From the NCBI GenBank assembly GCA_036873135.1, contig JAPTYO010000009.1:22775756-22839755 (forward strand): a stretch of 64,000 nucleotides of DNA. Reading direction: 5' to 3'. Positions 295 through 51,973 of the stretch are shown here, one piece after another (positions within the stretch are counted from its first letter, which is position 1; every line of letters begins with the position of its first letter). This DNA comes from Clarkia xantiana subsp. parviflora (Eukaryota > Streptophyta > Magnoliopsida > Myrtales > Onagraceae). Both the position numbers and the translations under genes were made by a program. Below the pieces are notes generated by a model that saw only the letters and a list, made by a program, of their open reading frames with translations, was not told the origin of the DNA and searched no databases.

Positions 295-328
295 TCTCTT
301 ACGAAAAGCCGTGGCTATTAAGCGAAGT

Positions 329-904: not shown

Positions 905-2845
905 TGTCCCCACCTTTGCCTCCACGGGTTCCTATTCCACCAGATGGGGGAAGGATAACAACCGAGCAAATCGAGGCGCTAATCGCCAAGAAAATGGAAG
1001 AGTCAAAGGTCAAGATAATGCATAACTTGAGGGACCGGGCCTCACATCCTTTCTCCCAGGAGTTGGTCGACATCATTATACCAGAGAGTGTGACGCCAGC
1101 TGAAATCCCTCGTTACTCGGGGAAGGGTGATCCAGTCGAACATGTACAACAACATGAGGCATCATTGCTAGGGCGTACCAAAGATGAGAATCATATTGCA
1201 TTGCTATTCCCGACCACCTTGGCGGGGGCAGCGTCACATTGGTTCTTTGGCCTGCCAAATGGCTCTGTAACCTCCTGGCAATACTTAAAGTCCAAATTCC
1301 TCCAGCGCTACCTAGGAGCCCGACAGTTGCTTAAAGGTTCGAATTCGATAGATGACGTTCGACAGGCACATGACGAAACCCTGGCGAGCTATTACGCTCG
1401 TTTCAATCAAAACTTGGCTGACATAGACGAGGACTTGGGGAAAAAGGAGATTATTAGGGCATTCATGCGGAATCTCGGACGTTTGGGGTGCTTCATTGGA
1501 AAATAATATGACTCTGAAGCCGGTCTACACTTTGGAGGAGTTAGCTACTCGTGTGAAGTCCTATATCAATCTGGAGCAAACAAGGTCTTTCCGCAAAAAT
1601 AAAAAGGCTGCAGAGTCGATGGGGGGAGAAACGAAGAAAAAGGTGGATAAACCTGTTCAACAAACGTCCCGTCGTCCTACGGTAAATTGGGTGCCTCCAG
1701 GGAATACTCCCAGGGGCGGTGTGCGTAGTGAAGACAATCGCCATCGTTCGAACGAGGTCCACGCGGTAGACCCTACACCACTTAATAGGGAGTTTTCGGT
1801 GATCCTACACGAAATGAGACAAAAGGGCCTGGACACCCCTCCGCCTCTGAAGAAGCCTGGTGTACAACTAGGAGGTCATTCAGATCGATGGTGCGAATAC
1901 CACCAGTGCAAGGGACATCACACAGACCATTGTATCATACTGGGAAAGGACATAGAGAAACTGATCCAACAAGGTCATTTGAAGGAGTTCGTTGAAAAAC
2001 CGAATAAAAGGCCACGTAGTCCTGCTCCCCCTCCACCTCCGTCGACTCAGGACAAAGGTAAGAAGGTGGTCGAAGACAACCCTCCAAAGAAAAATATTAT
2101 CAACATGATTCATGGAGGTTTCGCATCAGGAGGAACGGTTAGCAATGCTAGAGAGGTGTATGCCTCACAAGCAGGAGATATTGCGCTGACCAGGAAGCGA
2201 CCTCATTCATCCAATGAAGCAGTTATCTCTTTTTCAGAAGGAGATTTGAGGGGAATAGTTTTCCCACATGACGATGCGCTGGTTATCACTATGAACATTG
2301 CGGAATGTGACGTGAAGAGGATATTGGTGGATGGAGGGAGTTCTTCCGACATTCTATTTTTGGAAGCTTTTACGGCATTGGGAAAAAAGAAGTCGGATCT
2401 TAAGCCACTTGATTTTCCACTTGTGGGATTTGCAGGGTTGACCTCTTATCCATTAGGGTCTATCCTTTTGCCAGTAGTTATCGGTTCAGGACGGAGGAAG
2501 CTAGAGATACATGTTTCCTTTTTAATTGTGGATACTCCCAGTGCGTACAATGGGATCTTGGGTCGAACGACAATTAACCCCTATCTGATTGTCCCTTCAA
2601 CAGCACATCAAGTGATGAAATTCCCGACAAAATATGGAGAGGGAGTGGTGAAGGGGGATCAAACGGCATCCCGACACTGTTATGTCAACGCTCTGAGAAG
2701 GCGATATCAAAAGCCCATGGGTGAAGCTCTTAACATAGTGACGGAGATCGATCCAAGGGAGGAGAAAGGTCGTCCATCTCCAATAGAGGAATTGAAGGAG
2801 GTAGAGGTGGACGGGCCTGAGAGGAGGCTCTGGTCCAGCTCTTAA
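904..2845 (+). pseudogene. Gag and protease of gypsy copy A (frameshifted)
   Basis: Two open frames, 904-1506 and 1496-2845, together encode the capsid-type Gag and the aspartic protease. The retrotransposon gag domain covers about 1030-1500 (ASHWFFGLP, SYYARFNQNLADID, AFMRNLGRLG). A degenerate zinc-knuckle-like block follows (CEYHQCKGHHTDHC near 1890-1930). The protease has the VDGGSSSDIL active-site form near 2330 and the NGILGRTTIN flap-like block near 2550. The frame is lost at a run of G at 1485-1488 that is one base longer than in copy B. A second lesion, a 40-bp deletion near 2821-2826 relative to copy B, cuts the protease from RT. The product would package element RNA in cytoplasmic particles if intact. 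Confidence 0.88.
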
Positions 2846-5800
2846 GGAAATTTAAAGAACTCTTCGCTTGGTCTTCGAGTGATATGCCGGGTATCAGCAC
2901 CGATATCATTTCTCATGAATTGAGGCTCGACCCAGCAATCAGGCCAATCGTTCAGAAGAGAAGGCCTATGGGAGAAGAGAAGAAGGAGGCCATTCGTCAA
3001 GAAGTCGGAAAGTTGATTGAGGCGGGTTTCGTCAAGGAATTACGATTCCAGTCATGGGTAGCGAACCCAGTACTGGTGCAGAAGTCAAATGGGAAATGGC
3101 GGATGTGTGTGGATTTTCGTGACTTGAACAAGGCATGTCCAAAGGACGCCTATCCATTACCAAGGATCGACCAGCTCGTGGATGCTACCTCAGGACATGA
3201 GCTAATGAGTTTCACGGATGCTTATTCGGGGTACAACCAAATCAAGATGGCACCTGAAGACGCCCCCCATACAGCGTTCTATGCAGATAGTGATATTTAT
3301 CACTACGAAGTAATGCCGTTCGGACTTCTCAACGCGGGAGCAACCTATCAGAGGATGGTGAACAAAATTTTCGGAGATCTCATCGGGAAAACCATGGAAG
3401 CATATGTCGATGATATGTTAGTGAAGTCAAAAAGAAGTGCGGATCACGCTGGGGACTTGGCTACGACATTTGAAAGGATGCGTCTACACCAAGTACGATT
3501 GAATCCCACGAAATGTGCATTCGGGGTGCAATCGGGGAAGTTCCTTGGTTTCATGGTGAGTCAACGTGGAATAGAGGTAAACCCGGAGAAGTTACAAGCC
3601 ATAGAGGAAATGCACTCGCCAACGTGCCATAGAGAAGTCCAACGTCTTAATGGTAGACTAGCTTCGTTGAATAGATTCCTGTCGAAGGCCGGAGAGAAGT
3701 CCTTACCATTCTTTGAAGTCTTACGAGCTAACAAGAAGTTTGAGTGGACGGACAAATGCGAAGAGGCGTTTCAGCAGTTGAAGAGACATCTAGTCACTCT
3801 ACCACCCTTGGCAAAGCCTATCCCGAGAGAAGTCTTGTATTTATATCTTTCAATAAGCGATGTGGCAGTTAGTTCTGTATTGATGAAGGAAGAGGTAGGC
3901 GCCCAACTTCCCGTTTATTTTGTAAGCAAGACTTTGTCAAAGAGTGAAATAAACTACTCCGCCATTGAAAAGTATCTTTATGCGTTGGTAATAGCAGCAA
4001 GAAAGTTGCGACCTTACTTTCATGCACATGAAGTGACCGTATTGACTAACCAACCACTCAAACATTTCTTGCAAAAACCCGATGCTTCGGGAAGAATGAT
4101 CAAATGGGCGGTAGAGTTAACGGAGTTTCGAATTCATTTCGCACCTCGAATCGCAATTAAGGGACAAGCTTTAGCAGACTTCATCGTTGAGTCCACAGGT
4201 CCTACTTTGGAAGAAACACCTCCTGTAGAAGGGGAGAAAGGGACCAACCAATCCGTCAACGACACTAGCTTAATATGGTGAATGTACACGGACGGATCAT
4301 CCAACTCAGAAGGCTCGGGGGCAGGCCTCTTGCTAATCCTTCCCAATGAGGGTACCCCATTACGCTACGCTTTAGCTTTAACTTTTAGAGCTACCAACAA
4401 TGAGGCGGAGTACGAAGCATTGATTACAGGGCTACGCATTGCAAAAGGGGTCAGAGTGGAACACATTCGTGTAAAATGTGATACCCAATTGGTTGTCAAC
4501 CAAGTAAGGGGGGATTATGTCGCAAGGTCAGAAAGGATGCAAAAATACTTACACGAAGTCAAAACGTTGGTTGAAAAGTTTGAGAGCTTCGACATAGAGG
4601 CGATACCGCGAGAAGAAAATCAAGAGGCAGACGCATTGAGTAAATTTGCGTTAGGAATCCCCATTATGCAAGAAGTGCAATTTGTGGAGAGGGTCCTCAT
4701 TTCGACAGCGGAACAGGCGAACGTAATGATGGTAGACTCTACTCCTACTTGGATGACCCCCATTTTCCAATACCTATCTGAAGGTATCCTTCCTCAAGAC
4801 TCAGTGGTGGCAACAAGGATTCAACGGTTAGCCATAAATTACATCATTGTGGTTTATATATTATACAAGAAGGGATATTCTACACCTTATCTCAGATGCG
4901 TCGCATACCCAGTGATGGAGAGGATCCTTCGGGAATTGCACGATGGATATGCAGCTTGCCATGAAGGAGCCAAGTCTATAATTCGAAAAGTCCTTAACCA
5001 AGGATATTATTGGCCAACGATGAACAAGGAGGCCATTGACATGGTCCAGGCTTGTGAAGCTTGTCAAATGTACTCAAGGAAGATTACGGCGCCAGCCGCA
5101 CCTCTAACATCAATACCCAGTGCATGGCCCTTCGCTCAATGGGGAATCGACCTAATAGGGCCATTGCCTAAGTCTAAGGGACAACGAACGTGCATCATCG
5201 TTGCGATCGATTATTTTTCCAAATGGATTGAGGTAAAGGCACTAGCTAGGACAACTGAATTTCACGTGTTGAAGTTCCTCAAATCACGGATTGTATCGAG
5301 ATATGGAGTTCCTAGAGTGCTGATTAGTGACAATGGCCCACAATTTGCAGGTTCGAAAATAGCGTGGTATTGTGAACAACTCAACATTGAGCATCGCTTT
5401 GCCTCAGTCCGACATGCACAGACTAACGGGCAAGTAGAATCCGCAAATAAAATCGTGTTAGATGGATTGAAGAAGAGACTGATAGCATTAAGGGTAATTG
5501 GGTTGATGAGCTAGAAAACGTTCTCTGGGCAGTGAGGACTACTCCTAAGAAATCCACAGGCGAAACACCTTTTAGCTTGGTGTACGGAACAGAAGCAATG
5601 GCTCCAGTGGAAGTAGCAGTACCTTCACACCGAGCTATCCACTTTGAGGAGGACACTAACGAAGAAGCACGGCGTCTCGACCTAGACATGGTGGAAGAGA
5701 GGCGACACAAAGCAGAAGAAGCTCAAGCAAAAATGAGACTAGTTACGGCTAGATATTACAATAGGCGAGTCAAGACACGCCAGTTTTTCTTGGGGGAGAT

Positions 5801-5981
5801 GGTATTGAGAAGAAACGAATTCTCGCGACAGAACCGACTAAACAAATTATCTCCAAAGTGGGAGGGCCCCTACAAGATCGCATCCATTCCTGCCGTGAAC
5901 GCCTACAGGTTGGAAGACAATGAAGGAAACATCTCCACCAACACTTTTAGTGGGGAACATCTTAGAAAGTTTTATGCTTAA
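2846..5981 (+). pseudogene. Pol of gypsy copy A: RT, dual RNase H, integrase (broken)
   Basis: RT spans about 2970-3560 (KWRMCVDFRDLNKACPKD, MPFGLLNAGATYQ, catalytic YVDDMLVK). The first RNase H (about 3720-4150) is decayed at its catalytic start: YLSISDVAVSSVL stands where a TDAS-type motif is expected. After a short linker comes a second RNase H (4282-4660) with a full acidic set (MYTDGSSNSEG, NNEAEYEAL, CDTQLVVNQ, ENQEADALS). Integrase follows: HHCC zinc finger (CHEGAKS, CEACQMY), then the D-D-E core (WGIDLIGPLP, ISDNGPQF, HAQTNGQVESA). Lesions: TGA at 4279-4281 where copy B has CGA (a CpG-type transition), and a single-base loss near 5489 that shifts the frame; the correct frame resumes at 5532-5981 and ends in KFYA. 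Confidence 0.92.
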
Positions 5982-6070
5982 ATATATGATAATATTATGT
6001 ATAAAAAATAAGGACGATGTTGACTTCAATTCTGAATAAAGGCATAAGTGATATGTTATAGATATTGGTC

Positions 6071-6101
<31 letters not shown>

Positions 6102-6840
6102 AAAGGGTAGGTGGACGCACCACCCTTCATACAAAGATGATCGACCCGATAAAGGCGATCTTCCCGCAATTACTCCGCGGGAGTATTACGTAAAGGGTAG
6201 ACAAACCACCCTTCATACAAAGATGCTCGACCCGATAAAGACGATCATCCCACAATTACTCCACGGGAGTATTACGTAAAGGGTAGACAAACCACCCTTC
6301 ATACAAAGATTCTCGACCCGATAAAGGCGATCATCCCACAACTACTCCTCGGGAGTCTTACGAAAAAGGGGAGGTAGATAAACCACCCTTCATACGAATG
6401 TGTTCGACCGAATGAATAAATCATTCCGCAACTATAGCCCGAGGGTCTTATGACGGAACAAATCAGTAAAACCTTAAGTTGACGAAAGGGTAAGGATGAA
6501 CTCTAACGACAACGAAAGGACGAATTGATGAACAAGTTGGCATAAGAGTAAGTCGACGAATCATGAAGGTAGCAGAAGAGTAAATCTACATATTCATAAG
6601 CAAGGTAGCAGGTAAATCTACTGAATACTAAATCACTCGTTACCATAAATTAGCATACAACCATTCTCATTCAATGTTATATCATCAAAAGCACAAGTTG
6701 CGAAGAGGGTGGAAGATAATGGTTCCTTCCGAAAATATACATCTTAAACCAAGTTACCATTCCGATAGTAATGTAGAGGTAGAGTCTTAAAAACTAAATA
6801 GTCTTACATTGAAAATAGATAATAAAAGACTTTGAAATGA
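5982..6840. other. Noncoding spacer between pol and antisense gene (copy A)
   Basis: This holds the end of pol, a poly-A tract (about 6080-6103), a four-unit tandem repeat (6108-6400) and about 440 bp of unique sequence. Pol on + and the antisense gene on - converge here, so both transcripts should terminate in it. No open frame of note; the mirror region in copy B is 17234-18091. Confidence 0.7.
6108..6400. repeat. 86-bp tandem repeats with hairpin (copy A)
   Basis: The unit start CCACCCTTCATAC recurs at 6120, 6206, 6292 and 6383, giving periods of 86, 86 and 91. Each unit holds a short palindrome of the type CTCCGCGGGAG (CTCC/GGAG stem) and a conserved TCGACCCGATAAAG block. The mirror array in copy B is at about 17690-17980. 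Confidence 0.88.
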
Positions 6841-7377
6841 AGGATCAATTCAAGGCGTCATCATCGCTATCAGTAAGGTGGACTTCGTCTTCTTCTTCGT
6901 TCGGAACCCTGTTCTCTTGGGAGGCGACGTCGGAATCCTCATCTGAAGGTTGGTCGGAAGAATAGCAGACTTCCTCACGAAGAGGAGATGGGAGATCAAC
7001 GCCTCTTTCACGAAGGTAGAACACGGCATAATCACATATCTCCGGAACCTTGCCAAAGTTAAAATGAGGATCCATGGCATGAAGTAGGGGTGAGCAATGG
7101 TTTAGCAAGACCATAACCGAGCCCAAGACCGCCCAAGACCAAGACCATTAGCCCAAGACCGTTTAGGACCATGACCAATGGTCTTCTTTTATTGGTCTTA
7201 ATTGGTCATGGTCTTAATTTCGGTCCAAGACCATTAAGACCATTTGAGACCATTTAGGACCATTAAGACCATTGTATTATTATAAAAAAAACTGGAAATA
7301 ATAATTTATAATAAAAGTTAAAACCTCCGCTGCGTCGAGAGCAAACTTGAGAAACATTAGATTAGCTGAATAATTAG

Positions 7378-8246
7378 GATTTTTTTGACCAAAATAGGTT
7401 TACATGGACAACCAAATACAAATATAGGCTAGAAAAAAAATCTAATTACAAATATAGAGCTGGCCGGGTTGGGGGAACCCGGCCAAGTGAGTTCCAAAAT
7501 TGGACTTCAGGCCGGGTTCCCCCAACCCGGCCAACTGAATTTTTTTTCTGATTCTACCATAGAGGCCAACGATAGACAATAACTCCTTTTTTTTTTTTCG
7601 GAAAAAAAAAAATAGGAACTCATTTGGCCGGGTTCCCCCAACCCGGCAAAATATGTTTTTTTTTCTAAAAAACCTATTAGAGAATTTGGTTGCGGGTTGT
7701 TGACATCGCAATTAATTAATTTTGAGAAAAAAAAAAGAAACACTACTTGGCCGGGTTGTGGGAACCCGGCCAAATGAGTTCGGAAAAATATAAAATTAGT
7801 AGTTTTGTAATTTTTTTACGAAAACTGGTAAACGGCAAATGTCTGTCAATTTTCCATCTAGGGTTCACCATTTCCAATAGGTTTTTTAGAAATAAATTTA
7901 CAAAACCATTAATTTTTACAAATTCTATTAAAAAAGCCAAAAAAAAAAAAAAAAACAGGAAAAAAAAAAAACGAAAAAAAAATTACATATTTGGCCGGGT
8001 TGGGGCGACCCGGCCAAGTGAGATCCATATTATTATTATTATTTTTTTTTTCAGTTTTCCGAAAAAAAAAAAATCAGTTGGCCGGGTTGGGGGAACCCGG
8101 CCAAGTGAAGTCCAATTTTGGAACTCACTTGGTCGGGTTCCCTCAACCCGGCCAGCCCTATATTTGTAAAGGTTTTTTTTTTTTTTTTTCTAGCCTATAT
8201 TGGTATTTGATTGTCCATGTAACCCTATTTTGGTAAAAAAAAACTC
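7378..8246. mobile_element. MULE-like non-autonomous element nested in the hAT element
   Basis: 869 bp with long terminal inverted repeats of about 60 bp (outer part GATTTTTTTGACCAAAATAG at left; the complement of the right end is nearly the same) and an exact 9-bp duplication AATAATTAG (7369-7377 and 8247-8255). Nine-base duplications with long TIRs are typical of Mutator-like elements. It encodes no transposase; the interior is a set of GC-rich palindromes in A/T-tract DNA. Confidence 0.85.
7462..8153. repeat. Seven dispersed 23-bp palindromes GGCCGGGTT…AACCCGGCC
   Basis: Copies start at 7462, 7510, 7626, 7749, 7993, 8080 and 8131. Each is two 9-base arms around a 5-base core (GGGGG or CCCCC in most), so each can form a hairpin. 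Several are followed by AAGTGAGTTCC-like sequence. They lie in DNA otherwise dominated by A and T tracts. The third copy has lost its last base. Confidence 0.9.
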
Positions 8247-11200
8247 AATAATTAGTTTATGAAGTTGCTTGCTACAGAGAGATGAAAAGTTTATGTTTGT
8301 AAAGTGCAAAGTGCCAAAATACTACATTTTCGTGTTTGATTTATTTTCTGTCTAATATCAGGGAAATTGTAACTTTGTTACACCAAGTTATGTAATTTGA
8401 TAAGTGTCTTATTTGTTATTTATGGATCGTATAACCATAAAACTTATTTGAACACTTTATCAGGTATTGATTACACCAATCTAAACTATTATATATAATT
8501 ATAATAAACATATTTTCAATTTAAAATTATTACAAAATAATATTCGACAAATTTTAAAAAAATAAATTAAATTAAAAAACATAAAAAATAAAATGGTCCT
8601 AAATGGTCCTAATGGTCTGGACCAAAACCAGAACCAAAAAGACCAAGACCATTTGTAAATGGTCCAAATGGTCCTGGTTTGGTCCTAGACCATTTGGAGG
8701 AGGACCATTTACAAATGGTCTTGCATGGTCTTGGTCTGGTCCTGACCAGGACCAGACCACGCTCATGAAGTTGCCTTGCAATTCTTCCATACCCTTTGAC
8801 AATTAGACCCTCACACTTCTCTACAGCATCCTTCTGGAATTGGTCAGAGCCCTTATACCTCTCGACAACTAATTTCTCTAACGCCTCTTGGCGACTAGGG
8901 GATAACTCCAATCCTTCTTCCATCTTCTCCTTCAAGGAGGCTAGCTCCGACTCTTTCTCCTTAAGAGAAGCTATCTCCAAATCTTTTTCCTGAAGAATGG
9001 TGGCGTTCGACTTCGCTTGATTCTCCCACCCTAGAATCGAAGCCTTCAAAGAGGCGACCTCTTCCTGAGAGGTCTTCTTCAACCCTTCGTACTCTTCGAC
9101 AACTCGAACCCGTTCTTGGACGGCTTTCTCCAAGTTAAGCTTCAGGGTGTCCACTTCTTTTTGCAAATCATCCACCTTCACCTTTAAATCGGCGACATCC
9201 TCGGGTTGTTTCACTTCTCTCTCGGCATCTTTCTCACGGAGCTTGGCCAATTTGAGAGACAGCTGGAGAGTATGATACGCAACGTTCTTCTCCATGGCTA
9301 CAACCTGAAAAAGAAAAAGATGGATTCAAATAAAAGACAAGTAAAAAATGAGTAGATAAGGGTGCCATACCTCCGCGAGACGAGACATGTGTTCTCTAAG
9401 CATAATCTGAACTCCCTCGGGGCTAGTGTCCAAGTCGCGTCGATCGCCAGGCGGGACCATAGCATTCAGGAGGTGCAACCCAACATCCTCATCCTGCACG
9501 GAATGACCCCGGCTAAAATTCATATCGCTCAAGGTGTCGAATGGCCTCCAGTCCTCATGGATACGCTCAGCCCGACGCTTAGCGTTCTCACGCTCAAACA
9601 TATCGGTTAGGAAATTGAAATGTCGACCGAAGAAGCCCGGAGGATTTTCATCCGAAACGGCGTAACAACTCGAAGGCTCCAAGTCAGTCGACTTGACCTC
9701 CTTGACGATGGCATTCCAAGAATCAGTGGTGACATCCTTCTGAGGAGTAGGTCTACTCTTGGAAGAGACTACACATTTACCCTTATCCAAGGACAAATCT
9801 ACCTTCTTCTTGGAACCTGCAATGGGAATAAGAAATCATGAGAATTGAATAATGAAGACATAAGTAAAGATAAGAAGTTCTAGGAAGTGCGGGTTAGATA
9901 CCTTTGTTACTATCAAGCGGTCTAGATGCGGAAGCTCCAGGTAGATACGGACGAGATTTCTTCGCCTTAGGGTCGGAAGGGACTCCTGGAAGAAGAGCCG
10001 AAGAGGCTTTCGAAGTCCTGATCGGATCGTCAGAACCATGACTAGCCATGCCCAGTTTGCGCTTCTTACTGCTAATCCCCTGTGTTTTTATGAAAGCATC
10101 AGCAAGACCCCTTACAAAAGAACAGGAATGGATTAAAGTAGTAGGAGTCGTACCAAGGTCTCAAGTACAGGAGATCGAATGCCAGCCCCCACTAAGGAAG
10201 CTTCGTCAATCAATGTATAGTCAAGAGGCACGAAATTATCAGAGCAATGATACTCATATATGAGAAGAAGGGTTTCAGATTCTTGAACACTCAATGAAGA
10301 ATAGGGTGGAGTCGGATCTTTAGAAAGAGGGTTTATCCTCCATGGCACCCCTTTATCTTCACATAAGAAGTAAAACCCTTTCCATCTGGAGTTGTCAACC
10401 TTATGCTTTAATACAAGAGGGCATAGAGTGTCCCATTCAAATTCAGGAGCTCCCGCTCGAAGGCTAGCCCTATCCGTGTACTTCGGCCAGCGGGAAGTGA
10501 GAGTCTTCATTTCAGTATCTTTGATATGAGTAAGCCCAAAAAAGAATCGGAATAGATTCTACGAGTATGGCCAAGAATGGACATTACAAAGGACACGAAA
10601 CCCTACCCACATCCTAATGGCATGAGGAGTTAATTGGGTGGGAGCTACCCTCCAGTAACGACACGCTTCCAAAAGATCGGAACAATAATGGAAGCGAAGA
10701 CCCGCATGAGCATGAACGGAGAAGACAACTGATTCTCCCTCAAGAGGAGGGGTGATAGGAATAGATTCATCCTTGGGACGACGGACTCCAGAAGGGCCAC
10801 GAGTTTTGAGTTCGCCATTGGTATTCAAAAGCTTAACATCCCTTTCGAAATTAACCGGGAGAAGCATATTGGGATGCAAATCTGTTGGAACGAAAAAGTA
10901 TCTAGGAGGAAGAGACTCACTCATGATCTTACGGCGCGTAAGATAATCAAAGGTTATACCGAGAAGAAACTTCTCCTCCTATTGATGAAGTAGGAAATAT
11001 TGAACCGGGTTCGATAACCTTACACCCCTACAAAGAAAAATGGCACATTACACCTTACCAATACAAGTAGTCACATAATCACAAAATCACAAATCGGCAT
11101 ATGGCTAAGGCATCAAGGCATCACATCGAATAACAATACGCTAAGTGGGTAAGTGTACATTTAATTTCGCAAAAAATAATAATAATAATAATAATTTACC

Positions 11201-11960
11201 TCAACAGAGAGGGAGGTGGCTGCAGCTCCGGTGGGCCCGGTAGCTACGGGCTGCGGACCGCGATAACTCCGGAAGCTGAGGAGGTCCTGGATGGCGGAGG
11301 CTCCGGTGGCGCGCGGCGGCGACTCCTGCAGCCGCGACGACTCCGGACAGCAGCGACTCCGGCAGCAGCTCCCGAAAGCGACTCCGGCAGCAGCTCCCGA
11401 CAGCGACTCCGGCAGCAGCTCCCGATAGCAACTCCGGCGAAGGCCGGAGCGGTGGCTGGAGCTCCCAGGACCGGCGGAACCAGCGGCTGAGCACGACAGA
11501 TCCGACGACAGGACGAGGCGGACGTGGCGGCGGCGCAACCGGGGGCAAGAGGCGGACGTCGCGACGGCCACGGCTGACTCTGGTGGTGGCTGGAGCTCCG
11601 GCGGACTCAAAGCTTGAGGAGGAAGGAAAAGCCTTGAAACCCTAACACTCTAAGGAAGGAGATGGAGGCAAATGAGACAAAAAGGGAGAAGGATATGTAT
11701 ATATGCCTTGTATGACTAGGGTTTTGCTCTCCACCTTTAGATCTCTTCCATCTAACGGTTTAAATTAATTCTCTAGTGAATTGAATATCTAACATTTTCA
11801 GTAATTCAAAATACGAAAACTCCTTTAAACGGAACAGATTGGCAAGAATAACTTATCGTTTAAATATCTCCGTATTGGGAAAGTGTTGACATTTTATATA
11901 TGTTCAATATACGTGAATTTTATTAGCAGAATAAAGCCTAATGCAGGTAAAACCTACATC

Positions 11961-11975
11961 AGCCTCGGGGGCAAA
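11961..11975 (+). other. Polypurine tract of copy A
   Basis: AGCCTCGGGGGCAAA sits immediately before the 3' LTR start TGATGG and is the plus-strand primer site. The mirror in copy B is at 13828-13842. Confidence 0.8.
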
Positions 11976-12803
11976 TGATGGATATGGGTCCGTGTCTAAC
12001 ACGAGTATTCACCTTGGACGAACCCCGAAGGGCTCAACGAAACATTTCGGTCGATACCCACTATATAGGAGATACTCGACTCCTCTCCCTAGGGGAGAGG
12101 GTCGACCCCTTTCTACTAAGTGGTGAGGGTCGACCCCTCTCCACTGGTGGAGAAGGTCGACTCCTCTCCACCAGCGGAGTGGGTCGACCCCTCCCCACCA
12201 GTGGAGAGGGTCGACCCCTCTCCACCAATAGGAGAGGGTCGACCCCTCTCTACATAGTATGGAGAGGGTCGACCCCTCTCCAATAAGTGGAGAGGGTTGA
12301 CTCTTCTCCACTAATGGGGAGGGTCGATCCATCTCTATTAAAAGAAGGGTCGACCAAAGGACTGACTTCGTCTTACGAGTATATTCATTCCGTCTCAAAC
12401 GGAAGGTTGTGATATTCACCTTCCTGAAATCGTTATAATTGGGTTTCCTAATAAGGAGTTCAATTAATATATGGAATATACTGAATATTTAATGGCTCCG
12501 CATATAATGAATGATTCCCCGAATAGCAACAATCAATATACAACTTTCCATATACGAAGGTCGGCGCATCATCAATGCATGCACCCAGCCCTCCACTATA
12601 AATAGGTTTGCATATCTCCTATCAAGGTTACACTTTCTTACATTCATACTCTATATACTTTCAGTTCTTAGATATTCGTTTTCTGGGAACTGACTTGAGC
12701 GTCAGAGGGGGATCATCGGGTCCAACCCGATCTGTCCCTTTGTGCAGGTCCGGACGCACCGAAGGTCGAGTCTTGATTCAGAGTGGAAGATCAAGATCCA
12801 ACA
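11976..12803 (+). repeat. 3' LTR of copy A (828 bp)
   Basis: It starts TGATGGATATGG after the PPT and ends ATCCAACA. TATA box at 12597-12604. Its U3 contains the GTCGACC tandem array at about 12100-12330. The next ten bases (12804-12813) are the beginning of a PBS, which is not expected after a 3' LTR and shows that the junction is rearranged. Confidence 0.92.
12100..12330. repeat. 27-bp GTCGACC tandem array in LTR U3
   Basis: GGTCGA recurs at 12128, 12155, 12182 and 12209 and onward, a 27-base period with the consensus GGAGAGGGTCGACCCCTCTC. Each unit is palindromic around GTCGAC. The counterparts at about 13450-13735 and 24290-24495 differ in unit number and account for most of the LTR length difference (829 versus 772 bp). 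Confidence 0.9.
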
Positions 12804-12998
12804 TTGGCGCCGTCCTTTGGTCGACCCTTCTTTTAATAGAGATGGATAAACCCTCCCCATTAGTGGAGAAGAGTCGACCCTCTCCACTAAGTGGAGAGGG
12901 GTCGACCCTCTCCATACTAAGTAGAGAGGGGTCCACCCTCTCCTATTGGTGGAGAGGGGTCGACCCTCTCCACTGGTGGGGAGGGGTCGACCCTCGTC
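12804..12998. other. Scrambled junction between copies A and B
   Basis: 12804-12813 is TTGGCGCCGT, the start of a PBS. It is followed without a gap by an inverted piece of LTR U3 (about 12811-12995, GTCGACC repeats reading as in copy B), which stops mid-repeat at CCCTCGTC where copy B's LTR end begins. There is no target-site duplication. The bases GTC are shared between the PBS and the U3 entry point, so a microhomology join or template switch is likely. Confidence 0.8.
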
Positions 12999-13827
12999 TG
13001 TTGGATCTTGATCTTCCACGCTGAACCAAGACTCGACCTTCGGTGCGTTCGGACCTGCACAAAGGGACAGATCGGGTTGGACCCGATGATCCCCCTCCGA
13101 CGCTCAAGTCAGTTCCCAGAAAATGAATATCTAAGAACTGAAAGTATAGAGAGTATGAATGTAAGAAAGTGTAACCTTGATAGGAGATATGCAAACCTAT
13201 TTATAGTGGAGGGCTGGGTGCATGCATTGATGATGCGCTGACCTTCGTATATGGAAAGTTGTATATTGATTGTTGCTATCCGGGGAATCATTCATTATAT
13301 GCGGAGCCATTAAATATTCAGTATATTCCATATATTAATTGAACTCCTTATTAGGAAACCCAATTATAACGATTTCAGGAAGGTGAATATCACAACCTTT
13401 CGTTTGAGACGGAAGGAATATACTCGTAAGACGAAGTCAGTCCTTTGGTCGACCCTTCTTTTAATAGAGATGGATCGACCCTCCCCATTAGTGGAGAAGA
13501 GTCGACCCTCTCCATACTAAGTAGAGAGGAGTCGCCCCTCTCCTATTGGTGGAGAGGGGTCTACCCTCTCCATTGGTGGGGAGGGGTCGACCCTCTCCGC
13601 TGGTGGAGAGGGGTCGACCCTCTCCACTTAGTTGAAAGGGGTCGACCCTCTCCACTTAGTGGAGAGGGGTCGACCCTCTCCACTTAGTGGAAAGGGGTCG
13701 ACCCTCTCACCTAGGGAGAGGAGTCGAGTATCTCCTATATAGTGGGTGTCGACCGAAATGTTTCGTTGAGCCCTTCGGGGTTCGTCCAAGGTGAATACTC
13801 GTGTTAGACATGGACCCATATCCATCA
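12999..13827 (-). repeat. 3' LTR of copy B (829 bp)
   Basis: On the plus strand it runs from TGTTGGATC to CATATCCATCA, the complement of TGATGG…CCAACA. It holds the longest GTCGACC array in the window (about 13450-13735). Confidence 0.92.
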
Positions 13828-13842
13828 TTTGCCCCCGAGGCT
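13828..13842 (-). other. Polypurine tract of copy B
   Basis: TTTGCCCCCGAGGCT on + is the exact complement of copy A's PPT and abuts the 3' LTR. Confidence 0.8.
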
Positions 13843-14089
13843 GATGTAGGTTTTACCTGCATTAGGCTTTATTCTGCTAATAAAATTCACGTATATTGAA
13901 CATATATAAAATGTCAACACTTTCCCAATACGGAGATATTTAAACGATAAGTTATACTTGCCAATCCGTTCCGTTTAAAGGAGTTTTCGTATTTTGAATT
14001 ACTGAAAATGTTAGATATTCAATTCACTAGAGAATTAATTTAAACCGTTAGATGGAAGAGATCTAAAGGTGGAGAGCAAAACCCTAGTC

Positions 14090-14584
14090 ATACAAGGCAT
14101 ATATACATCTCCTTCTCCCATTTTGTCTCATTTGCCTCCATCTCCTTCCTTAGAGTGTTAGGGTTTCAAGGCTTTTCCTTCCTCCTCAAGCTTTAAGTCC
14201 GCCGGAGCTCCAGCCGCCTCCACCACCGGAGTCAGCCGTGGCCGTCGCGACGTCCGCCTCTTGCCCCCGGTTGCGCCTCCGCCACGTCCGCCTCGGCCTG
14301 TCGTCGGATCTGTCGTGCTCAGCCGCTGGTTCCGCCGGTCCTGGGAGCTCCAGCCACCGCTCCAGCCTTCGCCGGAGTTGCTGTCGGGAGCTGCTGCCGG
14401 AGTCGCTGTCGGGAGCTGCTGCCGGAGTCGCTGCTGTCCGGAGTCGTCGCGGCTGCAGGAGTCGCCGCCGCGCGCCACCGAAGCCTCCGCCATCCAGGAC
14501 CTCCTCAGCTTCCGGAGTTGTCGCGGTCCGCCACCCGTAGCTTCCGGGCCCACCGGAGCTGCAGCCACCTCCCTCTCTGTTGAG
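14090..14584 (+). promoter_or_regulatory. Putative promoter and GC-rich leader exon of the antisense gene (copy B)
   Basis: AAAACCCTAG at about 14080 and a TATATACA stretch near 14100 precede a CT-rich leader and then about 400 bp of very GC-rich, Ser/Arg/Pro-coding-looking sequence. That block ends at a position (14584/14585) where copy A has a clean GT donor (GAG|GTAAATT); copy B has AT there, so the donor is lost. Open frames inside are compositional and are not called as genes. The start of transcription is inferred. Confidence 0.45.
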
Positions 14585-14851
14585 ATAAATTATTTTTTTT
14601 TTTTTGTGAAATTAAATGTACACTCACCCACTTAGCGTATTGTTATTCGATGTGATGCCTTGATGCCTTAGCCATATGCCGATTTGTGATTTTGTGATTA
14701 TGTGACTACTTGTATTGGTAAGGTGTAATGTGCCATTTTTTTTTGTAGGGGTGTAAGGTTATCGAACCCGGTTTAATATTTCCTACTTCATCAATAGGAG
14801 GAGAAGTTTCGTCTCGGTATAACCTTTGATTATCTTACGCGCCGTAAGATC

Positions 14852-17233
14852 ATGAGTGAGTCTCTTCCTCCTAGATACTTTTTCGTTCCAACAGATTTGC
14901 ATCTCAATATGCTTCTCCCGGTTAATTTCGAAAGGGATGTTATGCTTTTGAATACCAATGGCGAACTCGAAACTCGTGGCCCTTCTGGAGTCCGTCGTCC
15001 CAAGGATGAATCTATTCCTATCACCCCTCCTCTTGAGGGAGAATCGGTTGTCTTCTCCGCTCATGTTCATGCGGGTCTTCGCTTCCCTTATTGTTCCGAT
15101 CTTTTGGAAGCGTGTCGTTACTGGAGGGTAGCTCCCACCCAATTAACTCCTCATGCCATTAGGATGTGGGTAGGGTTTCGTGTCCATTGTAATGTCCATT
15201 CTTGGCCATACTCGTTGAATCTATTCCGAATCTTTTTTGGGCTTACTCATATCAAAGATACTGAAATGAAGACTCTCACTTCCCGCTGGCCGAAGTACAC
15301 GGATAGGGCTAGCCTTCGAGCGGGAGCTCCTGAATTTGAATGGGACACTCAATGCCCTCTTGTATTAAAGCATAAGGTTGACAACTCCAGATGGAAAGGG
15401 TTTTACTTCTTATGTGAAGATAAAGGGGTGCCATGGAGGATAAACCCTCTTTCTAAAGATCCGACTCCACCCTATTCTTCATTGAGTGTTCAAGAATCTG
15501 AAACCCTTCTTCTCATATATGAGTATCATTGCTCCGATAATTTCGTGCCTCTTGACTATACATTGATTGACGAAGCTTCCTTAGTGGGGGCTAGCATTCG
15601 ATTCCTGTACTTGACACCTTGGTACGACTCCTACTACTTTAATCCATTCCTGTTCTTTTGTAGGGTGCTTTCATAAAAACACAGGGGATTAGCAGTAAAA
15701 AGCGCAAACTGGGCATGGCTAGTCATAGTTCTGACGATCCGATCAGGACTTCGAAAGCCTCTTCGGCTCTTCTTCCAGGAGTCCCTTCCGACCCTAAGGC
15801 GAAGAAATCTCGTCCGTATCTACCTGGAGCTTCCGCATCTAGACCGCTTGATAGTAACAAAGGTATCTAACCCGCACTTCCTAGAACTTCTTATCTTTAC
15901 TTATGTCTTCATTATTCAATTCTCATGATTTCTTATTCCCATTGCAGGTTCCAAGAAGAAGGTAGATTTGTCCTTGGATAAGGGTAAAGGCGTAGTCTCT
16001 TCCAAGAGTAGACCTACCTCTCAGAAGGATGTCACCACTGATTCTTGGAATGCCATCGTCAAGGAGGTCAAGTCGACTGACTTGGAGCCTTCGAGTTGTT
16101 ACGCCGCTTCGGATGAAAATCCTCCGGGCTTCTTCGGTCGACATTTCAATTTCCTAACCGATATGTTTGAGCGTGAGAACGCTAAGCGTCGGGCTGAGCG
16201 TATCCATGAGGACTGGAGGCCATTCGACACCTTGAGCGATATGAATTTTAGCCGGGGTCATTCCGCGTAGGATGAGGATGTTGGGTTGCACCTCCTGAAT
16301 GCTATGGTCCCGCCTGGCGATCGACGTGACTTGGACACTAGCCCCGAAAGAGTTCAGATTATGCTTAGAGAACACATGTCTCGTCTCGCGAAGGTATGGC
16401 ACCCTTATCTACTCATTTTTTACTTGTCTTTTATTTTACTCCATGTTTTTCTTTTTCAGGTTGTAGCCATGGAGAAGAACGTTGCGTATCATACTCTCCA
16501 GCTGTCTCTCAAATTGGCCAAGCTCCGTGAGAAAGATGCCGAGCGAGAAGCGAAACAACCCGAGGATGCAGCCGAGTTAAAGGTGAAGGTGGATGATTTG
16601 CAAAAAGAAGTGGACACCCTGAAGCTTAACTTGGAGAAAGCCGTCCAAGAACGGGTTCGAGTTGTCGAAGAGTACGAAGGGTTGAAGAAGACCTCTCAGG
16701 AAGTGGTCGCCTCTTTGAAGGCTTCGATTCTAGGGTGGGAGAATCAAGCGAAGTCGAACGCCACCATTCTTCAGGAAAAAGATTTGGAGATAGCTTCTCT
16801 TAAGGAGAAAGAGTCGGAGCTAGCCTCCTTGAAGGAGAAGATGGAAGAAGGATTGGAGTTATCCCCTAGTCGCCAAGAGGCATTAGAGAAATTAGCTGTC
16901 GAGAGGTATAAGGGCTCTGACCAATTCCAGAAGGATGCTGTAGAGAAGTGTGAGGGTCTAATTGTCAAAGGGTATGGAAGAATTGCAAGGCAACTTAATG
17001 CCATGGATCCTCATTTTAACTTTGGCAAGGTTCCGGAGATATGTGATTATGCCGTGTTCTACCTTCGTGAAAGAGGCGTTGATCTCCCATCTCCTCTTCG
17101 TGAGGAAGTCTGCTATTCTTCCGACCAACCTTCAGATGAGGATTCCGACGTCGCCTCCCAAGAGAACAGGGTTCCGAACGAAGAAGAAGAGGAAGTCCAC
17201 CTTACTGATAACGATGATGACGCCTTGAATTGA
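14852..17233 (+). pseudogene. Antisense spliced gene (aORF) of gypsy copy B
   Basis: Best view of the element's extra gene. 5'UTR intron 14585-14748 (acceptor TTTTGTAG). Coding exons about 14852-15621, 15664-15862, 15948-16393 and 16460-17233. Introns 2 and 3 have clear GT and AG ends (AAAG|GTATCT…TTGCAG; GAAG|GTATGG…TTTCAG). Exon 1 has the PF04195-like domain (PHAIRMWVGFRV, RIFFGLTHIKDTEM). Exon 2 carries a basic, nuclear-signal-like SSKKRKLG. Exon 4 is a coiled coil of about 150 residues (LKVKVDDLQKEVDTLKLNLE) ending in an acidic tail (NEEEEEVHL). Lesions: a one-base loss near the end of exon 1, TAG at 16268-16270, and the changed 5'UTR donor. Intron 3 is 66 nt, in frame and stop-free here, so retention would only add 22 residues. 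It converges on pol; function unknown. Confidence 0.75.
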
Positions 17234-17689
17234 TCCTTCATTTCAAAGTCTTTTATTATCTATTTTCAATGTAAGACTATTTAGTTTTTAAGACTCTACC
17301 ACTACCTTACTATCGGAATGGTAACTTGGTTTAAGATGTATATTTTAGGAATGAACCATTATCTTCCACCCTCTTCGCAACTTATGCTTTTGATGATATA
17401 ACATTGAATGAGAATGGTTGTATGCTAATTTATGGTAACGAGTGATTTAGTATTCAGTAGATTTACCTGCTACCTTACTTATGAATATGTCGATTTACTC
17501 TTATGTTACCTTCATGATTCGTCGACTTACTCTTATGCCAACTTGTTCATCAATTCGTCCTTTCGTTGTCGTTAGAGCTCATCCTTACCCTTTCGTCAAC
17601 TTAAGGTTTTACTGATTTGTTCCGTCATAAGACCCTCGGGCTATAGTTGCGGAATGATTTATTCATTCAGTCGAACACATCGTATGAAG

Positions 17690-17980
17690 GGTGGTTTATC
17701 TACCTCCCCTTTTTCGTAAGACTCCCGAGGAGTAGCTGTGGGATGATCGCCTTTATCGGGTCGAGCATCTTTGTATGAAGGGTGGTTTGTCTACCCTTTA
17801 CGTAATACTCCCGTGGAGTAATTGTGGGATGATCGCCTCTATCGGGTCGAGCATCTTTGTATGAAGGGTGGTTTGTCTACCCTTTACGTAATACTCCCGC
17901 GGAGTAATTGCGGGAAGATCGCCTTTATCGGGTCGATCATCTTTGTATGAAGGGTGGTGCGTCCACCTACCCTTTTTTTT
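17690..17980. repeat. 86-bp tandem hairpin repeats (copy B)
   Basis: Mirror of 6108-6400: four units with TATGAAGGGTGG and the CTCCCGCGGAG-type palindromes. It lies between the converging antisense gene and pol of copy B. Confidence 0.85.
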
Positions 17981-23824: not shown

Positions 23825-24596
23825 TGTTGGATCTTGATCTTCCACGCTGAACTAAGACTCGACCTTCGGTGCGTCCGGACCTGCACAAAGGGACAGATCG
23901 GGTTGGACCCGATGATCCCCCTCCGACGCTCAAGTCAGTTCCCAGAAAACGAATATCTAAGAACTGAAAGTATAGAGAGTATGAATGTAAGAAAGTGTAA
24001 CCTTGATAGGAGATATGCAAACCTATTTATAGTGGAGGGCTGGGTGCATGCATTGATGATGCGCCGACCTTCGTATATGGAAAGTTGTATATTGATTGTT
24101 GCTATTCGGGGAATCATTCATTATATGCGGAGCCATTAAATATTCAGTATATTCCATATATTAATTGAACTCCTTATTAGGAAACCCAATTATAACGATT
24201 TCAGGAAGGTGAATATCACAACCTTCCGTTTGAGACGGAAGGAATATACTCGTAAGACGAAGTCAGTCCTTTGGTCGACCCTTCTTTTAATAGAGATGGA
24301 TCGACCCTCTCCACTGGTGGGGAGGGGTCGACCCTCTCCGCTGGTGGAGAGGGGTCGACCTTCTCCACCAGTGGAGAGGGGTCGACCCTCTCCATACTAA
24401 GTAGAGAGGGGTCGACCCTCTCCTATTGGTGGAGAGGGGTCGACCCTCTCCACCAGTGGAAAGGGGTCGACCCTCTCCCCTAGGGAGAGGAGTCGAGTAT
24501 CTCCTATATAGTGGGTGTCGACCGAAATGTTTCGTTGAGCCCTTCGGGGTTCATCCAAGGTGAATACTCGTGTTAGACATGGACCCATATCCATCA
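23825..24596 (-). repeat. 5' LTR of copy B (772 bp)
   Basis: TGTTGGATC to CATATCCATCA on +. TATA box complement TATTTATA at 24024-24031. Shorter than its partner because it holds fewer GTCGACC units (about 24290-24495). Confidence 0.92.
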
Positions 24597-47299: not shown

Positions 47300-50200
47300 G
47301 ATAATCAACCAGACGCCACTGGGGAGTCCTCACGGTCCTGATGCTCAGAAGAAGAACCACTAATGGAACTCGAAGAAGATGAAGAGGAATCTGAATTAAC
47401 GACATCGATAGGGGTAGTATCCTCCTGCACATGGGCATCAGGCACGTTCTCAGCAACAACAGCCTGCCCCCTAAGCACAGCAACATAGCCACTAGCATAA
47501 GGATTGGTCACCCAAGTCGTGAACCGGAAACTGAGGATCAATCATGAATATCTGATCTGTAAGATACTCTCCAAACTGGTTCATCTCCTTGGTGCACCGA
47601 ACCTGAAAATCAGCAGCATAGGCAGGGGAAGACTTATACTCAGCCACTGCAGTAACTCTCTCCTCCTTGCGACACTTCTCCTCAATATTCTTCAACTCCG
47701 CAGCATGGAGTGAAGAATCAACATCAGCTTGCCGGTGCAAATCAGCAATAGTAGTCTCAAGCGAGGCTACCTGATCTCGAAGTTCCTGCATCTTCAAATC
47801 AGAAAGGCGTGTTTTCTCCACGGCACTGCTAAGCTCAGCCTTTAAGGATACTTGTCTATCCTCAAGTACCTTGTTCTTCTCAGATAGCACAATGGCAACA
47901 GACGAGAGATTAACCATGTCAGACATGCCCTGAGACAATAAATAAACATTAAGTAGCATAGTAAACAACTACTTCAATTGGAAAATAAAAGAAAGAGATC
48001 GCTTACTGGGGCATAACGAGACAGGACCCCTTGAACAAAACGTCTGGTTTCCTTAGGAGACTTGGGAAGAGAGATGCGACCTCCAGGAGCAACAGCACTA
48101 CGTAAGACACGAACCCCAACCTCAGGAGTGTGCATTGAAGAATGGTTGTCAAAATGATACTCCTTCAATCCAGCAAAATGAGTCCACACAGCCCCAACAA
48201 TATCCTCGTCAGTCACACGAACCAAGTCTTTGCGACTCAAGGCAGGGAGTCGGACTGTATCAACAAGTTAGAAAATGAACACAAGCAACAAGTACCAATA
48301 CATCTACAAGTTATGAAGTAGAAACAAACCTGAGACTCGTTCCCTCGGCTGGGGGGCAATGGATGGAGAAGAGGCATCAACACCTATGGTCATCCCACCA
48401 CCATCGACAGGTCGCTTCCCTTTGTTAAGCAAGGAAGGCGCCTCTTCGACCACTATCTCTTTATCACGACAAGGTGTCGGCAAACGGGCATTCGAAGGAG
48501 AGTCTCTTGCAGTCTTTTTCTTCTTGACAACCGAGGGACCGACCTCAGAGTCAGGTTTCAGTGCCTTAGACTTTGATTAGCTCGAACTCTTGCTCACAGG
48601 AACGACACGCTCGGTGAGCAATGGCGAGTGCCCTGATAACATAAAGAAAACTACATGAGAACGGTTATAAGTATATCATAAAAGAAAAAGAAGAGAAGGA
48701 AGAACGTACTGGAAGCCTCTGCAGCCCTCCCCGACTTAGAAGATTTATTGGGAGCAGAGCTGGAGGGTCCCTTCCTCTTGCTCAAATCAATGGGCTCCGC
48801 CTGCACAGTATATCCGTGAAACCAACCTACAAAGGAAAAACAAAAGATGAATGAAAACGAGAAGACTAAGTGACATACCAAACCCTCGGAGGAAGGCGTC
48901 AAGCGAATCCCCGCCTCATACAGATCCGTCTCGGTTACCACAGACACAGGACAATAAGACTTGGTATGATGGCTTTGATAAATAACCTTCATGGTCTTTA
49001 TGTGTGAGGAAGATAACTCCCCAAAGGAAGGCCAGCCATCCGATCAATTCTCATGAAGAACCGACCAAGTCACGTAGCGATCGGTGATGAAAAAATAATA
49101 CTTAGACCAATGACTCGACGAATTATCAAGGGGAGCCACAAAGCGAAGGTCGTTGTTCCACTCGACCTCACCCAACCCCAAATCCTCAAATCAGGTGTCT
49201 TTAAGAAGAGGATAACGAGTCACCAAGCTCGCGAAACCGATCTTTTTCTGATATTGGAAGCGATAAAAACAACGGAATAGAACCAAGGAATACTTCCATG
49301 AGTACCACTGGCATAATACACGGAATCCTACCCAGACACGGATAGCATGGGGCCAAGGTTCACAGGGGAAATCCTGAAGAACCGGCAGAGTTCGATGAGG
49401 TCGTGACAATAGGGGAAGCGTAACCCGTATCGAATCTGAGAGGTGTACTACAACCTTCCCCTCCGGGGGCACTGTTACGGTCTCTCGAATATTCTTCAGA
49501 CACGGAAGGAAGGGGTATAAAGGTTCATCTAAGAGACTAATGTCAACTAACTCAACATGCTCGTTATAGTCACTCCGACCAAATGGTTCCCCGACAATGG
49601 CGCAAGACCTAACTCGAAAGCAGTAGGAAATTCCAAACTTGAGACAGACTCCGACTCAGACCAATATTCAAACTCAGTATCTGGCTCAGAATCCGACTCT
49701 GAGCTAACGTCAGGAAAGAAAGTAACGCGACGAATTGAGGGGATGAAAAACTTACTCATCCTGCGTAGAATGTAGCGCCGTTGCAAAGTCGAGTTTTGGG
49801 GCACCACCACGAGTATAATACCTGCCATACCAAGCTAAGTGTCAGAACAGAGCGATTTCCCAGGAAAGCTCGGAAATAGCCCAATATCGACATATCGACA
49901 ACTATGCCACATAACGATCAACAAGCAACAATCAAGCCTCAAGGATACCCAACAACAACGGCTACGTACGAGCAATTTTACGACATCAAAACCAAACAAG
50001 GAAAATCCAACGGGGCAAAAACCACTTCCGAGCAAACGAATATCTACTCACTACGGCAACCACAAGTCAAGCATTCGGGAAGTTATCACAAGTCTAGTCT
50101 AAGCAATCGAAATACGAGCATTTAATATGTCACAAGACGGAAAAAAGATCGAACCTTGGAAATCCCGAGCCAATTCGAAATCCCGAGCCGGAGTCAAGAC

Positions 50201-51185: not shown

Positions 51186-51973
51186 TGATGGATATACGCC
51201 CAATTTGAACTCGTCTCCCTTCGGATTGTCTTATTTTAATCGCCCCACTTACGATTATAAATCGAAACTTGGACCCGAGCACTTCACTCGCAACGCGAAC
51301 GGCCCGGACGAGCCAAAATATTCGTCCGGACCGGTCCGTTGGTCTCACCTAGGTGAGATCGGGCTAGCCGGCCCGATCTCTCCTAGGAGAGATCGGGTGG
51401 CCTTGATCGATCTCTCCTAGGAGGGATTGGGTCAGCTGACCCAGCCCCTCCCAAGAGAGGTCGGGCAAGCTGACCCGATCCTAGGCCTTAGGGGTCGGAT
51501 TTTACGTCCGACCCCGAGGGTCCCGACATCTATTTTACCCGCCTCATACTTAGACTTTTTCACCCACCTCTACGCGTGTTTAAAGGTTTTAATCCTGCTG
51601 TTATGTGTTAATAAAGTACGTTTAGGGATTAACGCTGTCATCAAGTCATCTTAATCCCCCCATAGCCTATATATACTTCGCAAGTTCTATTCATTTGGAC
51701 AAGTTTACATCTTCGCACGTTTTAGCTCTGCATTCTCTCTAGGATTTTCTCTCTCTAAAGAGCCTGAACTTATTTAGGCATCGGAGAGGGTTCACCGAGC
51801 ACTACCCCCCCCCCCCCCCTCTTAGTGCTCGGTACTGCCCATTGTGCAGGTTTGAGAGGAGCAGAGGAACGGATCACACCGACTAGCTAAGCGGATTAGG
51901 AAGAAGAGCGAAATACCCATGAGAGGTGTCACTCGGATCAGAGACCCATCAACCCGAGGCACACGTCTTAACA
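51186..51973 (+). repeat. 3' LTR of element C (788 bp)
   Basis: TGATGGATATACG to GTCTTAACA. Contains tandem TCTCTCCTAGGAGAGATCGG-type palindromes (51375-51440), a TATA box at 51668-51675 and a C run at about 51806-51819. It has one more palindromic unit than the 5' LTR and is uninterrupted. Confidence 0.9.

What the first reader, a model, noticed from the sequence alone, without database searches (positions are those of the whole stretch)
14090..17233. A spliced, promoter-bearing antisense gene inside a retrotransposon
The extra gene has a leader exon, a 5'UTR intron and three more introns on the strand opposite to the genomic RNA. Its splice signals are therefore invisible to the packaged sense transcript, so the introns survive retrotransposition. 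It encodes a PF04195-like domain, a basic patch, a coiled coil and an acidic tail, a layout that would suit a nuclear regulator. Extra antisense ORFs are known in Tat-lineage elements, but the intron layout and role are unclear.
Basis: partly seen in the sequence, partly recalled or inferred. Interest (0 to 1): 0.75.

Follow-up and report, generated by a model that had tools for sequence, protein, structure and literature searches.

The report
Spliced antisense gene in plant retrotransposon
The extra gene lying backwards inside this plant retrotransposon looks like a real, ancient, multi-exon gene of an already described family (the Retand TRP28 gene); its conserved intron layout and promoter are the fresh part, and the copies in this window are broken.

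Summary
An antisense gene lies between pol and the 3' LTR of two 98% identical Retand-type Ty3/gypsy copies (A and B). It has PF04195 (Transposase_28) in exon 1, a leader, a 5'UTR intron and three coding introns. Both copies are dead genes: A has a stop in exon 1 and an insertion in exon 4; B has a frameshift, a stop in exon 3 and a lost 5'UTR donor. A third, divergent element (C) in the window carries the same gene, also broken. The gene is already known as a class: antisense PF04195 ORFs occur in 97% of the Retand clusters of one survey (PMC11963269). New evidence comes from the window's own genome. Intron positions and phases 0-1-0 recur in three families and partly in others. Codon periodicity stops at introns 1 and 2 and resumes in phase. 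In A and B upstream ATGs are confined to the 5'UTR intron. One group keeps a TATA box before the 5'UTR donor. Median dN/dS is 0.26-0.28. 18 of 20 sampled copies show no RT or integrase within 9 kb. Best reading: a nuclear accessory regulator with its own promoter. Function is inferred; no RNA data were available.

The parts
14100..14105 (+). TATA-like box of the antisense gene, copy B
   Evidence: Sequence, unchanged in copy A; role inferred. Group Y has a conserved TATA box at the matching place
14130..14584 (+). Leader exon, copy B (start inferred from the TATA-like box)
   Evidence: No ATG in the 558-nt spliced 5'UTR of B
14585..14748 (+). 5'UTR intron, copy B; donor GT is AT here, GT in copy A
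   Evidence: holds 7 ATGs
14852..15621 (+). Coding part of exon 1 with PF04195 (B has lost 1 nt near 15602)
15622..15684 (+). Intron 1, phase 0; a second, nearer AG ends at 15663
15685..15862 (+). Exon 2, basic (12 K/R in 59 residues)
15863..15947 (+). Intron 2, phase 1
15948..16393 (+). Exon 3; premature TAG at 16268-16270 in B
16394..16459 (+). Intron 3, phase 0
16460..17233 (+). Exon 4, heptad-like stretch and acidic tail
8764..11673 (-). Same gene in copy A: introns 11199-11028, 10153-10080, 9901-9817, 9370-9305; TAG at 10561-10559
7086..8763 (.). Insertion that interrupts exon 4 of copy A
47306..50155 (-). Divergent relative in element C: introns 50154-49822, 48878-48801, 48709-48633, extra 48329-48255, 48006-47930; broken by stops and frameshifts
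13447..13727 (.). Tandem array of dyad-symmetric ~27-nt units in the 3' LTR of copy B (also 12076-12335 in A, 24293-24496 in the 5' LTR of B)
51343..51480 (.). Tandem array of dyad-symmetric 34-nt units in the 3' LTR of element C
17682..17958 (.). 86-nt tandem array between gene and pol, copy B (6119-6409 in A)

Best explanation
This is the TRP28 (PF04195) accessory gene of Retand-type Ty3/gypsy elements: a true multi-exon gene on the strand opposite to the genomic RNA. It has its own TATA promoter beside the 3' LTR, an untranslated leader, a 5'UTR intron and three coding introns in phases 0, 1, 0 (four in element C). Shown by sequence: the layout, its recurrence across families, purifying selection on exon 1, and that the copies in this window are dead. 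Inferred: the transcript is spliced in vivo; the introns persist because the packaged RNA carries them as unspliceable reverse complements; the protein (PF04195 domain, basic patch, coiled coil, acidic tail) enters the nucleus and regulates expression of its own element or family. It is kept in elements without a detectable pol, so it probably helps its own element rather than supplying an enzyme.
For: Domain. Same intron places and phases in A/B, in relatives 54% identical to B, and in C. Third-position excess in exons 1 and 2 of groups Y, Q and V and in exon 3 of V; none in intron 1 (Y, Q, V) or intron 2 (Q, V; not tested in Y); the frame resumes in the predicted phase. 0 ATGs in the 558- and 577-nt spliced 5'UTRs of B and A against 7 in each 5'UTR intron. 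Group Y: 5'UTR donor in 10 of 15 loci, TATA 99-110 nt before it in 9 of those 10. dN/dS medians 0.274 (104 of 105 pairs), 0.282 (18 of 36), 0.259 (10 of 15). RT/integrase was found in 2 of 20 sampled 9-kb stretches, antisense to the gene in both; gag antisense in 7 more.
Against: No RNA evidence. No spliced, intron-less copy found (0 matches each). Intron 1 of the A/B family is 75 nt and stop-free in the four cuts made (L053-L056), so it could be retained there. A nearer AG precedes the coding acceptor in many copies. Gag lay only on the same strand as the gene in 4 of 20 stretches, three of which also hold an inverted second copy, and on both strands in one. The 5'UTR donor was not seen in 5 of 15 Y loci and hardly in Q and V. 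The predicted fold is unusable (mean pLDDT 44), and the PDB profile search gave only weak hits.
Confidence: 0.78

Rival explanations
1. The antisense transcript, not the protein, is the product: antisense RNA pairs with genomic RNA and feeds or tunes silencing; the reading frame is a relic.
For: PMC7264820 raises this possibility (sections read). Both copies here and element C carry broken frames.
Against: Exon 1 is under purifying selection in three groups, and codon periodicity resumes in phase after intron 1 in three groups. An RNA-only role needs neither.
Confidence: 0.12
2. The protein acts in particles or in nuclear import of the preintegration complex (structural helper), not in gene regulation.
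For: Basic patches in exons 2-3 and a likely coiled coil. Gag is antisense to the gene 4.3-6.6 kb away in 7 of 20 stretches, none of the 7 with detectable pol. PMC7264820 suggests such roles by analogy with retroviral accessory proteins.
Against: A gene with its own promoter and introns is expressed apart from gag-pol. DNA binding is predicted for the domain in PMC11963269 (results read).
Confidence: 0.2
3. A recently captured host gene carried passively.
For: It has introns, as host genes do.
Against: Shared in the same position by families about 32-45% identical in exon 1 protein and, by PMC11963269, present in 97% of Retand clusters of flowering plants.
Confidence: 0.04
4. The introns are chance GT..AG pairs in AT-rich stretches and the gene is a string of unrelated ORFs.
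For: Introns are short (63-97 nt) and T-rich, where GT..AG pairs are common.
Against: Residue-level agreement of introns 1 and 3 and phase agreement of intron 2 between families. Exon 2 and exon 3 lengths of the A/B family and of the 54% relatives differ by 9 and 48 nt, multiples of three, while intron 3 differs by 10-11 nt (after correcting a one-base offset in the script's exon 2 start).
Confidence: 0.05

Closest known systems
Retand-lineage TRP28 (PF04195) antisense ORF (PMC11963269; abstract to conclusions read, not the references or supplements)
   Same: Antisense ORF with PF04195 between pol and 3' LTR, long pol-3'LTR region, tandem arrays; 97% of clusters have it
   Different: That paper predicted ORFs with ORF Finder; the word intron does not occur in its main text. 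Here the gene is resolved as multi-exon with conserved phases and promoter.
Grande gene23 of maize (Gomez-Orte 2013; not held, seen only through PMC7264820)
   Same: Antisense accessory gene in a long 3' internal region, own promoter, nuclear protein
   Different: Whether gene23 has introns could not be read; Grande was not compared by sequence here
Ogre intron (sense strand; PMC6317226, passages)
   Same: Spliced plant Ty3/gypsy element of the Tat clade
   Different: [quoted passage not shown] here the introns are on the antisense strand
VANC anti-silencing proteins of VANDAL DNA transposons (PMC5735166, passages)
   Same: Element-encoded accessory protein; family-specific tandem repeats in non-coding parts of the element
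   Different: Different transposon class; no sequence relation tested; binding of the arrays here is a guess

Membership tests
Retand lineage (Tat clade, Ty3/gypsy) | Additional RNase H between RNase H and integrase (feature named in PMC6317226 for Ogre and Retand) | tested here: met
   RVT_3 (PF13456) at residues 3-123 of window:4282-5514, integrase core after it, RT/RNase H before it
Retand lineage (Tat clade, Ty3/gypsy) | PF04195 antisense ORF between pol and 3' LTR | tested here: met
Retand lineage (Tat clade, Ty3/gypsy) | Pol-3'LTR region of about 2.9-6.6 kb, often with tandem arrays | tested here: met
   Copy B: about 4.26 kb (pol ORF ends at 18092, LTR edge at 13827); 86-nt array
Retand lineage (Tat clade, Ty3/gypsy) | RT groups with Retand in a phylogeny | not tested
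   No reference RT set was fetched
TRP28 / Transposase_28 (PF04195) | Match over Pfam's curated cut-off | tested here: met
   27.7 bits against 26.2 for copy B exon 1
[quoted passage not shown]
   Only TATA conservation and basic patches seen
VANC-type anti-silencing system | Protein binds the element's own repeat motif and removes methylation | not testable with these tools
   Only the arrays were seen

The most novel reading that the evidence does not exclude
Gene and LTR array form one module. The TRP28 protein, dimerised by its coiled coil, binds the family-specific dyad-symmetric tandem array that sits near the edge of the 3' LTR facing the gene, a few hundred bases upstream of the antisense promoter, and keeps both the LTR promoter and its own promoter open. 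This would be a retrotransposon counterpart of VANC anti-silencing, kept even in elements that lost pol. Dyad-symmetric arrays occur upstream of the gene in A/B, in C, near L040 and near L028 (0 of 400 shuffles each), but not in the tested arrays near L018, L030 or L002, nor in a third array near L028.
Probability: 0.13. Interest if true: 0.8.

Novelty: new variant of a known kind. Interest (0 to 1): 0.5.

Why it matters
TRP28 genes are near-universal in the surveyed recently active Retand elements (PMC11963269), yet their function is unknown and they were scored there as ORFs. A reliable exon map gives the full-length protein, explains why ORF-based annotation cuts it short, and makes expression and localisation directly testable. 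It also points to a natural gene that keeps spliceosomal introns through an RNA-based life cycle by lying antisense.

Tried and rejected
Protein database search with exon 1 and with an alignment: 1 and 2 hits only. Viral and prokaryote genome collections: 0 confirmed relatives in 4 answered scans. AlphaFold of exon 1: mean pLDDT 44, so no fold search was made. PDB profile search: 4 hits at E 0.05-0.22, to chitosanases, taken as chance. Spliced, intron-less copies: 0 matches for one A/B junction and one group Y junction. I first suspected that the stretch between the two AGs of intron 1 is coding; codon periodicity is absent there in three groups, so I dropped that. I also briefly misread '-' loci as an odd protein type; they had simply not been reverse complemented.

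Results against, or limits: for the dyad arrays, a second consensus unit of the B array scored only a 10-nt palindrome (P 0.034) and no perfect palindrome of 14 or more lies in the B LTRs, whereas C has three; the array near L023 was not put through the shuffle test. The heptad count of exon 4 had no control. The low ATG count of the leaders is only mildly unusual on its own (shuffle P 0.031, 0.044 and 0.021 for A, B and C).

Rows dropped before counts: 5 of 15 Y, 2 of 6 V and 4 of 9 Q loci were left out of the periodicity alignment, pairs with dS at or below 0.03, saturated dS or fewer than 40 usable codons were left out (1 of 105, 18 of 36, 5 of 15). In one search the leader start is assumed from the TATA-like box. 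In some searches the nearer AG was found by a pattern that looks for it, so no count of it is claimed.

Full report
What is there. The window holds two near-identical Ty3/gypsy copies lying tail to tail, A (sense on +, up to about 12.8 kb) and B (sense on -, LTRs at 12999-13827 and 23825-24596), plus a more distant element C at about 37.7-52.0 kb. A has RT/RNase H, then an RVT_3 RNase H, then integrase, which with the antisense PF04195 gene fits the Retand lineage; no RT phylogeny was made. Between pol and the 3' LTR, on the opposite strand, lies the gene of the finding.

The gene. Copy B, + strand: TATA-like box 14100-14105, leader to 14584, 5'UTR intron 14585-14748, ATG at 14852, exon 1 to 15621 (PF04195, E=3.2e-6), intron 1 15622-15684 (phase 0), exon 2 to 15862 (basic), intron 2 15863-15947 (phase 1), exon 3 to 16393, intron 3 16394-16459 (phase 0), exon 4 to 17233 (heptad-like stretch, acidic tail).

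Both copies are dead. A: TAG at 10561-10559 and an insertion of about 1.68 kb in exon 4. B: one base lost near 15602 relative to A and to four other family copies (L053-L056), TAG at 16268-16270, and AT in place of the GT donor at 14585. A vs B dN/dS is 0.72 over 634 codons, against 0.89 for gag-pol over 1654 codons: decay after insertion, uninformative about selection.

A second family in the same window. Element C carries a relative on its antisense strand (32% identity over 197 residues, E=4.8e-24), also broken. Its introns stand at the same places: after exon 1 in phase 0, after a short basic exon 2 in phase 1, and in phase 0 directly after a shared motif (A ...SRLAE, B ...SRLAK, C ...SRYAP). 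It has one extra phase-1 intron, 48329-48255. In 253 residues of the best aligned pieces 101 are identical; pS is 0.74 (saturated) and pN 0.46.

The wider genome. The window's own assembly is held (695.6 Mb). PF04195 gave 150 scored matches of 11371 candidates, all above cut-off. Thirty loci fall by eye into three groups: Y (15), Q (9), V (6). Exon 1 dN/dS medians over 120 codons: 0.274 (Y, 104 of 105 pairs), 0.282 (Q, 18 of 36), 0.259 (V, 10 of 15); the other pairs were filtered out. Exon 1 carries its excess of differences at third codon positions up to the intron 1 donor (for example Q: 0.149, 0.096, 0.320); intron 1 does not (0.200, 0.242, 0.247), and exon 2 does again in phase 0 counted from the second AG (0.232, 0.190, 0.322). 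Groups Y and V agree for exons 1 and 2 and intron 1; exon 3 was tested in V only (0.136, 0.170, 0.231 in phase 1) and intron 2 in V and Q only (no excess). The stretch between the two AGs of intron 1 is not periodic, so the second AG is the coding acceptor. Eight further cuts, four from the A/B family and four from relatives about 54% identical, agree: intron 1 has GT and the coding AG in 8 of 8; intron 2 has GT..AG in 7 of 8 (one donor changed); intron 3 is present in the 6 of 8 that still align there. Exon 2 is 178 and 169 nt in the two families and exon 3 446 and 494 nt, differences that are multiples of three, while intron 3 is 66 against 76-77 nt (its exon 2 start for the A/B family is off by one base and is corrected here; one of the three relatives measured has an extra base in exon 2). 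A pattern for the intron 3 motif followed by GT matched 3 of the 50 loci scanned, all three in group V, which has 6 loci; many of the 3.2-kb loci may end before that intron.

Promoter and 5'UTR. In A and B the spliced 5'UTR (577 and 558 nt, start inferred) has no ATG, while the 5'UTR intron has 7 in each. In group Y a strong donor lies 741-858 nt upstream of the domain in 10 of 15 loci, and in 9 of those 10 a TATA box stands 99-110 nt before it; an alignment of 8 Y loci shows the box, the donor, the acceptor region and a start ATGAGT[A/G]A in one layout. The start ATGAGT is shared with A/B and with C. In Q and V the same scan found donors of this kind in only 2 of 9 and 1 of 6.

Where the gene lives. 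In 20 stretches of 9 kb picked down the table, RT or integrase was found in 2 (L042, L048), antisense to the gene in both. Gag was antisense to it 4.3-6.6 kb away in 7 (one, L034, has another gag on the same strand as well), on the same strand only in 4 (L032, L039, L040, L049; all but L039 also hold an inverted second copy, which may own that gag), and no gag, RT or integrase was found in 7. So 18 of 20 sampled copies lack a detectable pol nearby; nested insertions or the 9-kb limit could hide some. Five Y loci are among these 20 (L031-L035) and none showed RT. Persistence of the gene where pol is gone argues for a benefit to the element itself. Element C also shows no RT-like ORF of 120 aa or more between its LTRs apart from the inserted copia element (read by eye).

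How it probably works. Shown: architecture, conservation, selection. Inferred: the promoter near the 3' LTR makes an antisense pre-mRNA, splicing joins five exons, and the protein goes to the nucleus. The genomic RNA is sense, so reverse transcription copies the introns unspliced; this is the reverse of the logic of intron-bearing retrotransposition reporters, which the review PMC12786077 describes (passages only). That review also says that plant LTR retrotransposons generally lack introns, naming Ogre and EVADE as exceptions.

Against what is known. PMC11963269 (abstract to conclusions read) reports antisense TRP28 ORFs in 97% of Retand clusters, predicts DNA binding and proposes regulation; the word intron is absent from its main text. 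PMC7264820 (introduction to conclusion read) summarises Grande gene23 as antisense, nuclear and transcribed from its own promoter, and asks that antisense and spliced transcripts be looked for. I saw no description of an intron layout for these genes in the listings of searches or in the passages read, but Gomez-Orte 2013, the most likely place, is not held. So the gene is known; the multi-intron layout and its conservation are the addition.

A lead. Upstream of the gene, in the LTRs of A/B and C and at comparable distances near L040 and L028, lie short tandem repeats with strong dyad symmetry (0 of 400 shuffles each); other arrays near L018, L030, L002 and a third near L028 lack it, and so do the 86-nt array of A/B and the 35-nt array of C between gene and gag-pol. 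Whether the L040 and L028 arrays lie in an LTR was not shown. With a coiled-coil protein this suggests a factor-and-site module like VANC of VANDAL transposons (PMC5735166, passages). This is a guess.

Noticed in passing
window 12076-12335, 13447-13727, 24293-24496, 51343-51480; L051; L061: Tandem arrays of dyad-symmetric units in LTRs of two families (A/B and C) and upstream of the gene near L040 and L028, each with a different sequence.
   Followed up: partly
L031-L050: 18 of 20 sampled copies have no RT or integrase match within 9 kb downstream of the antisense gene; 7 keep gag antisense to it: apparent non-autonomous gag-plus-TRP28 elements.
   Followed up: partly
L053-L056, intron 1: In the A/B family intron 1 is 75 nt and free of stops in frame, so exon 1 to exon 2 reads open (frames of 361-373 aa for these four); the four relatives at 54% identity have an in-frame stop there. 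It may be optionally retained. A and B share a one-base loss in this intron.
   Followed up: partly
window 15657-15684 and matching places in groups Y, Q, V and C: Two AGs some 26-35 nt apart at the end of intron 1 in many copies; the stretch between is not codon-periodic. Possible alternative acceptor.
   Followed up: partly
window 12.8-13.0 kb; L032, L037, L040, L049: Copies A and B lie tail to tail with 3' LTRs almost abutting; several sampled stretches also hold a second copy of the gene or element in inverted orientation.
   Followed up: no
window 37983-42329: A Ty1/copia element (155-nt repeats at both ends) sits inside the 5' LTR of element C.
   Followed up: no
window 7086-8763: Insertion of about 1.68 kb in exon 4 of copy A, of unidentified type, with repeated GGCCGGGTTGGG-like stretches.
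   Followed up: no
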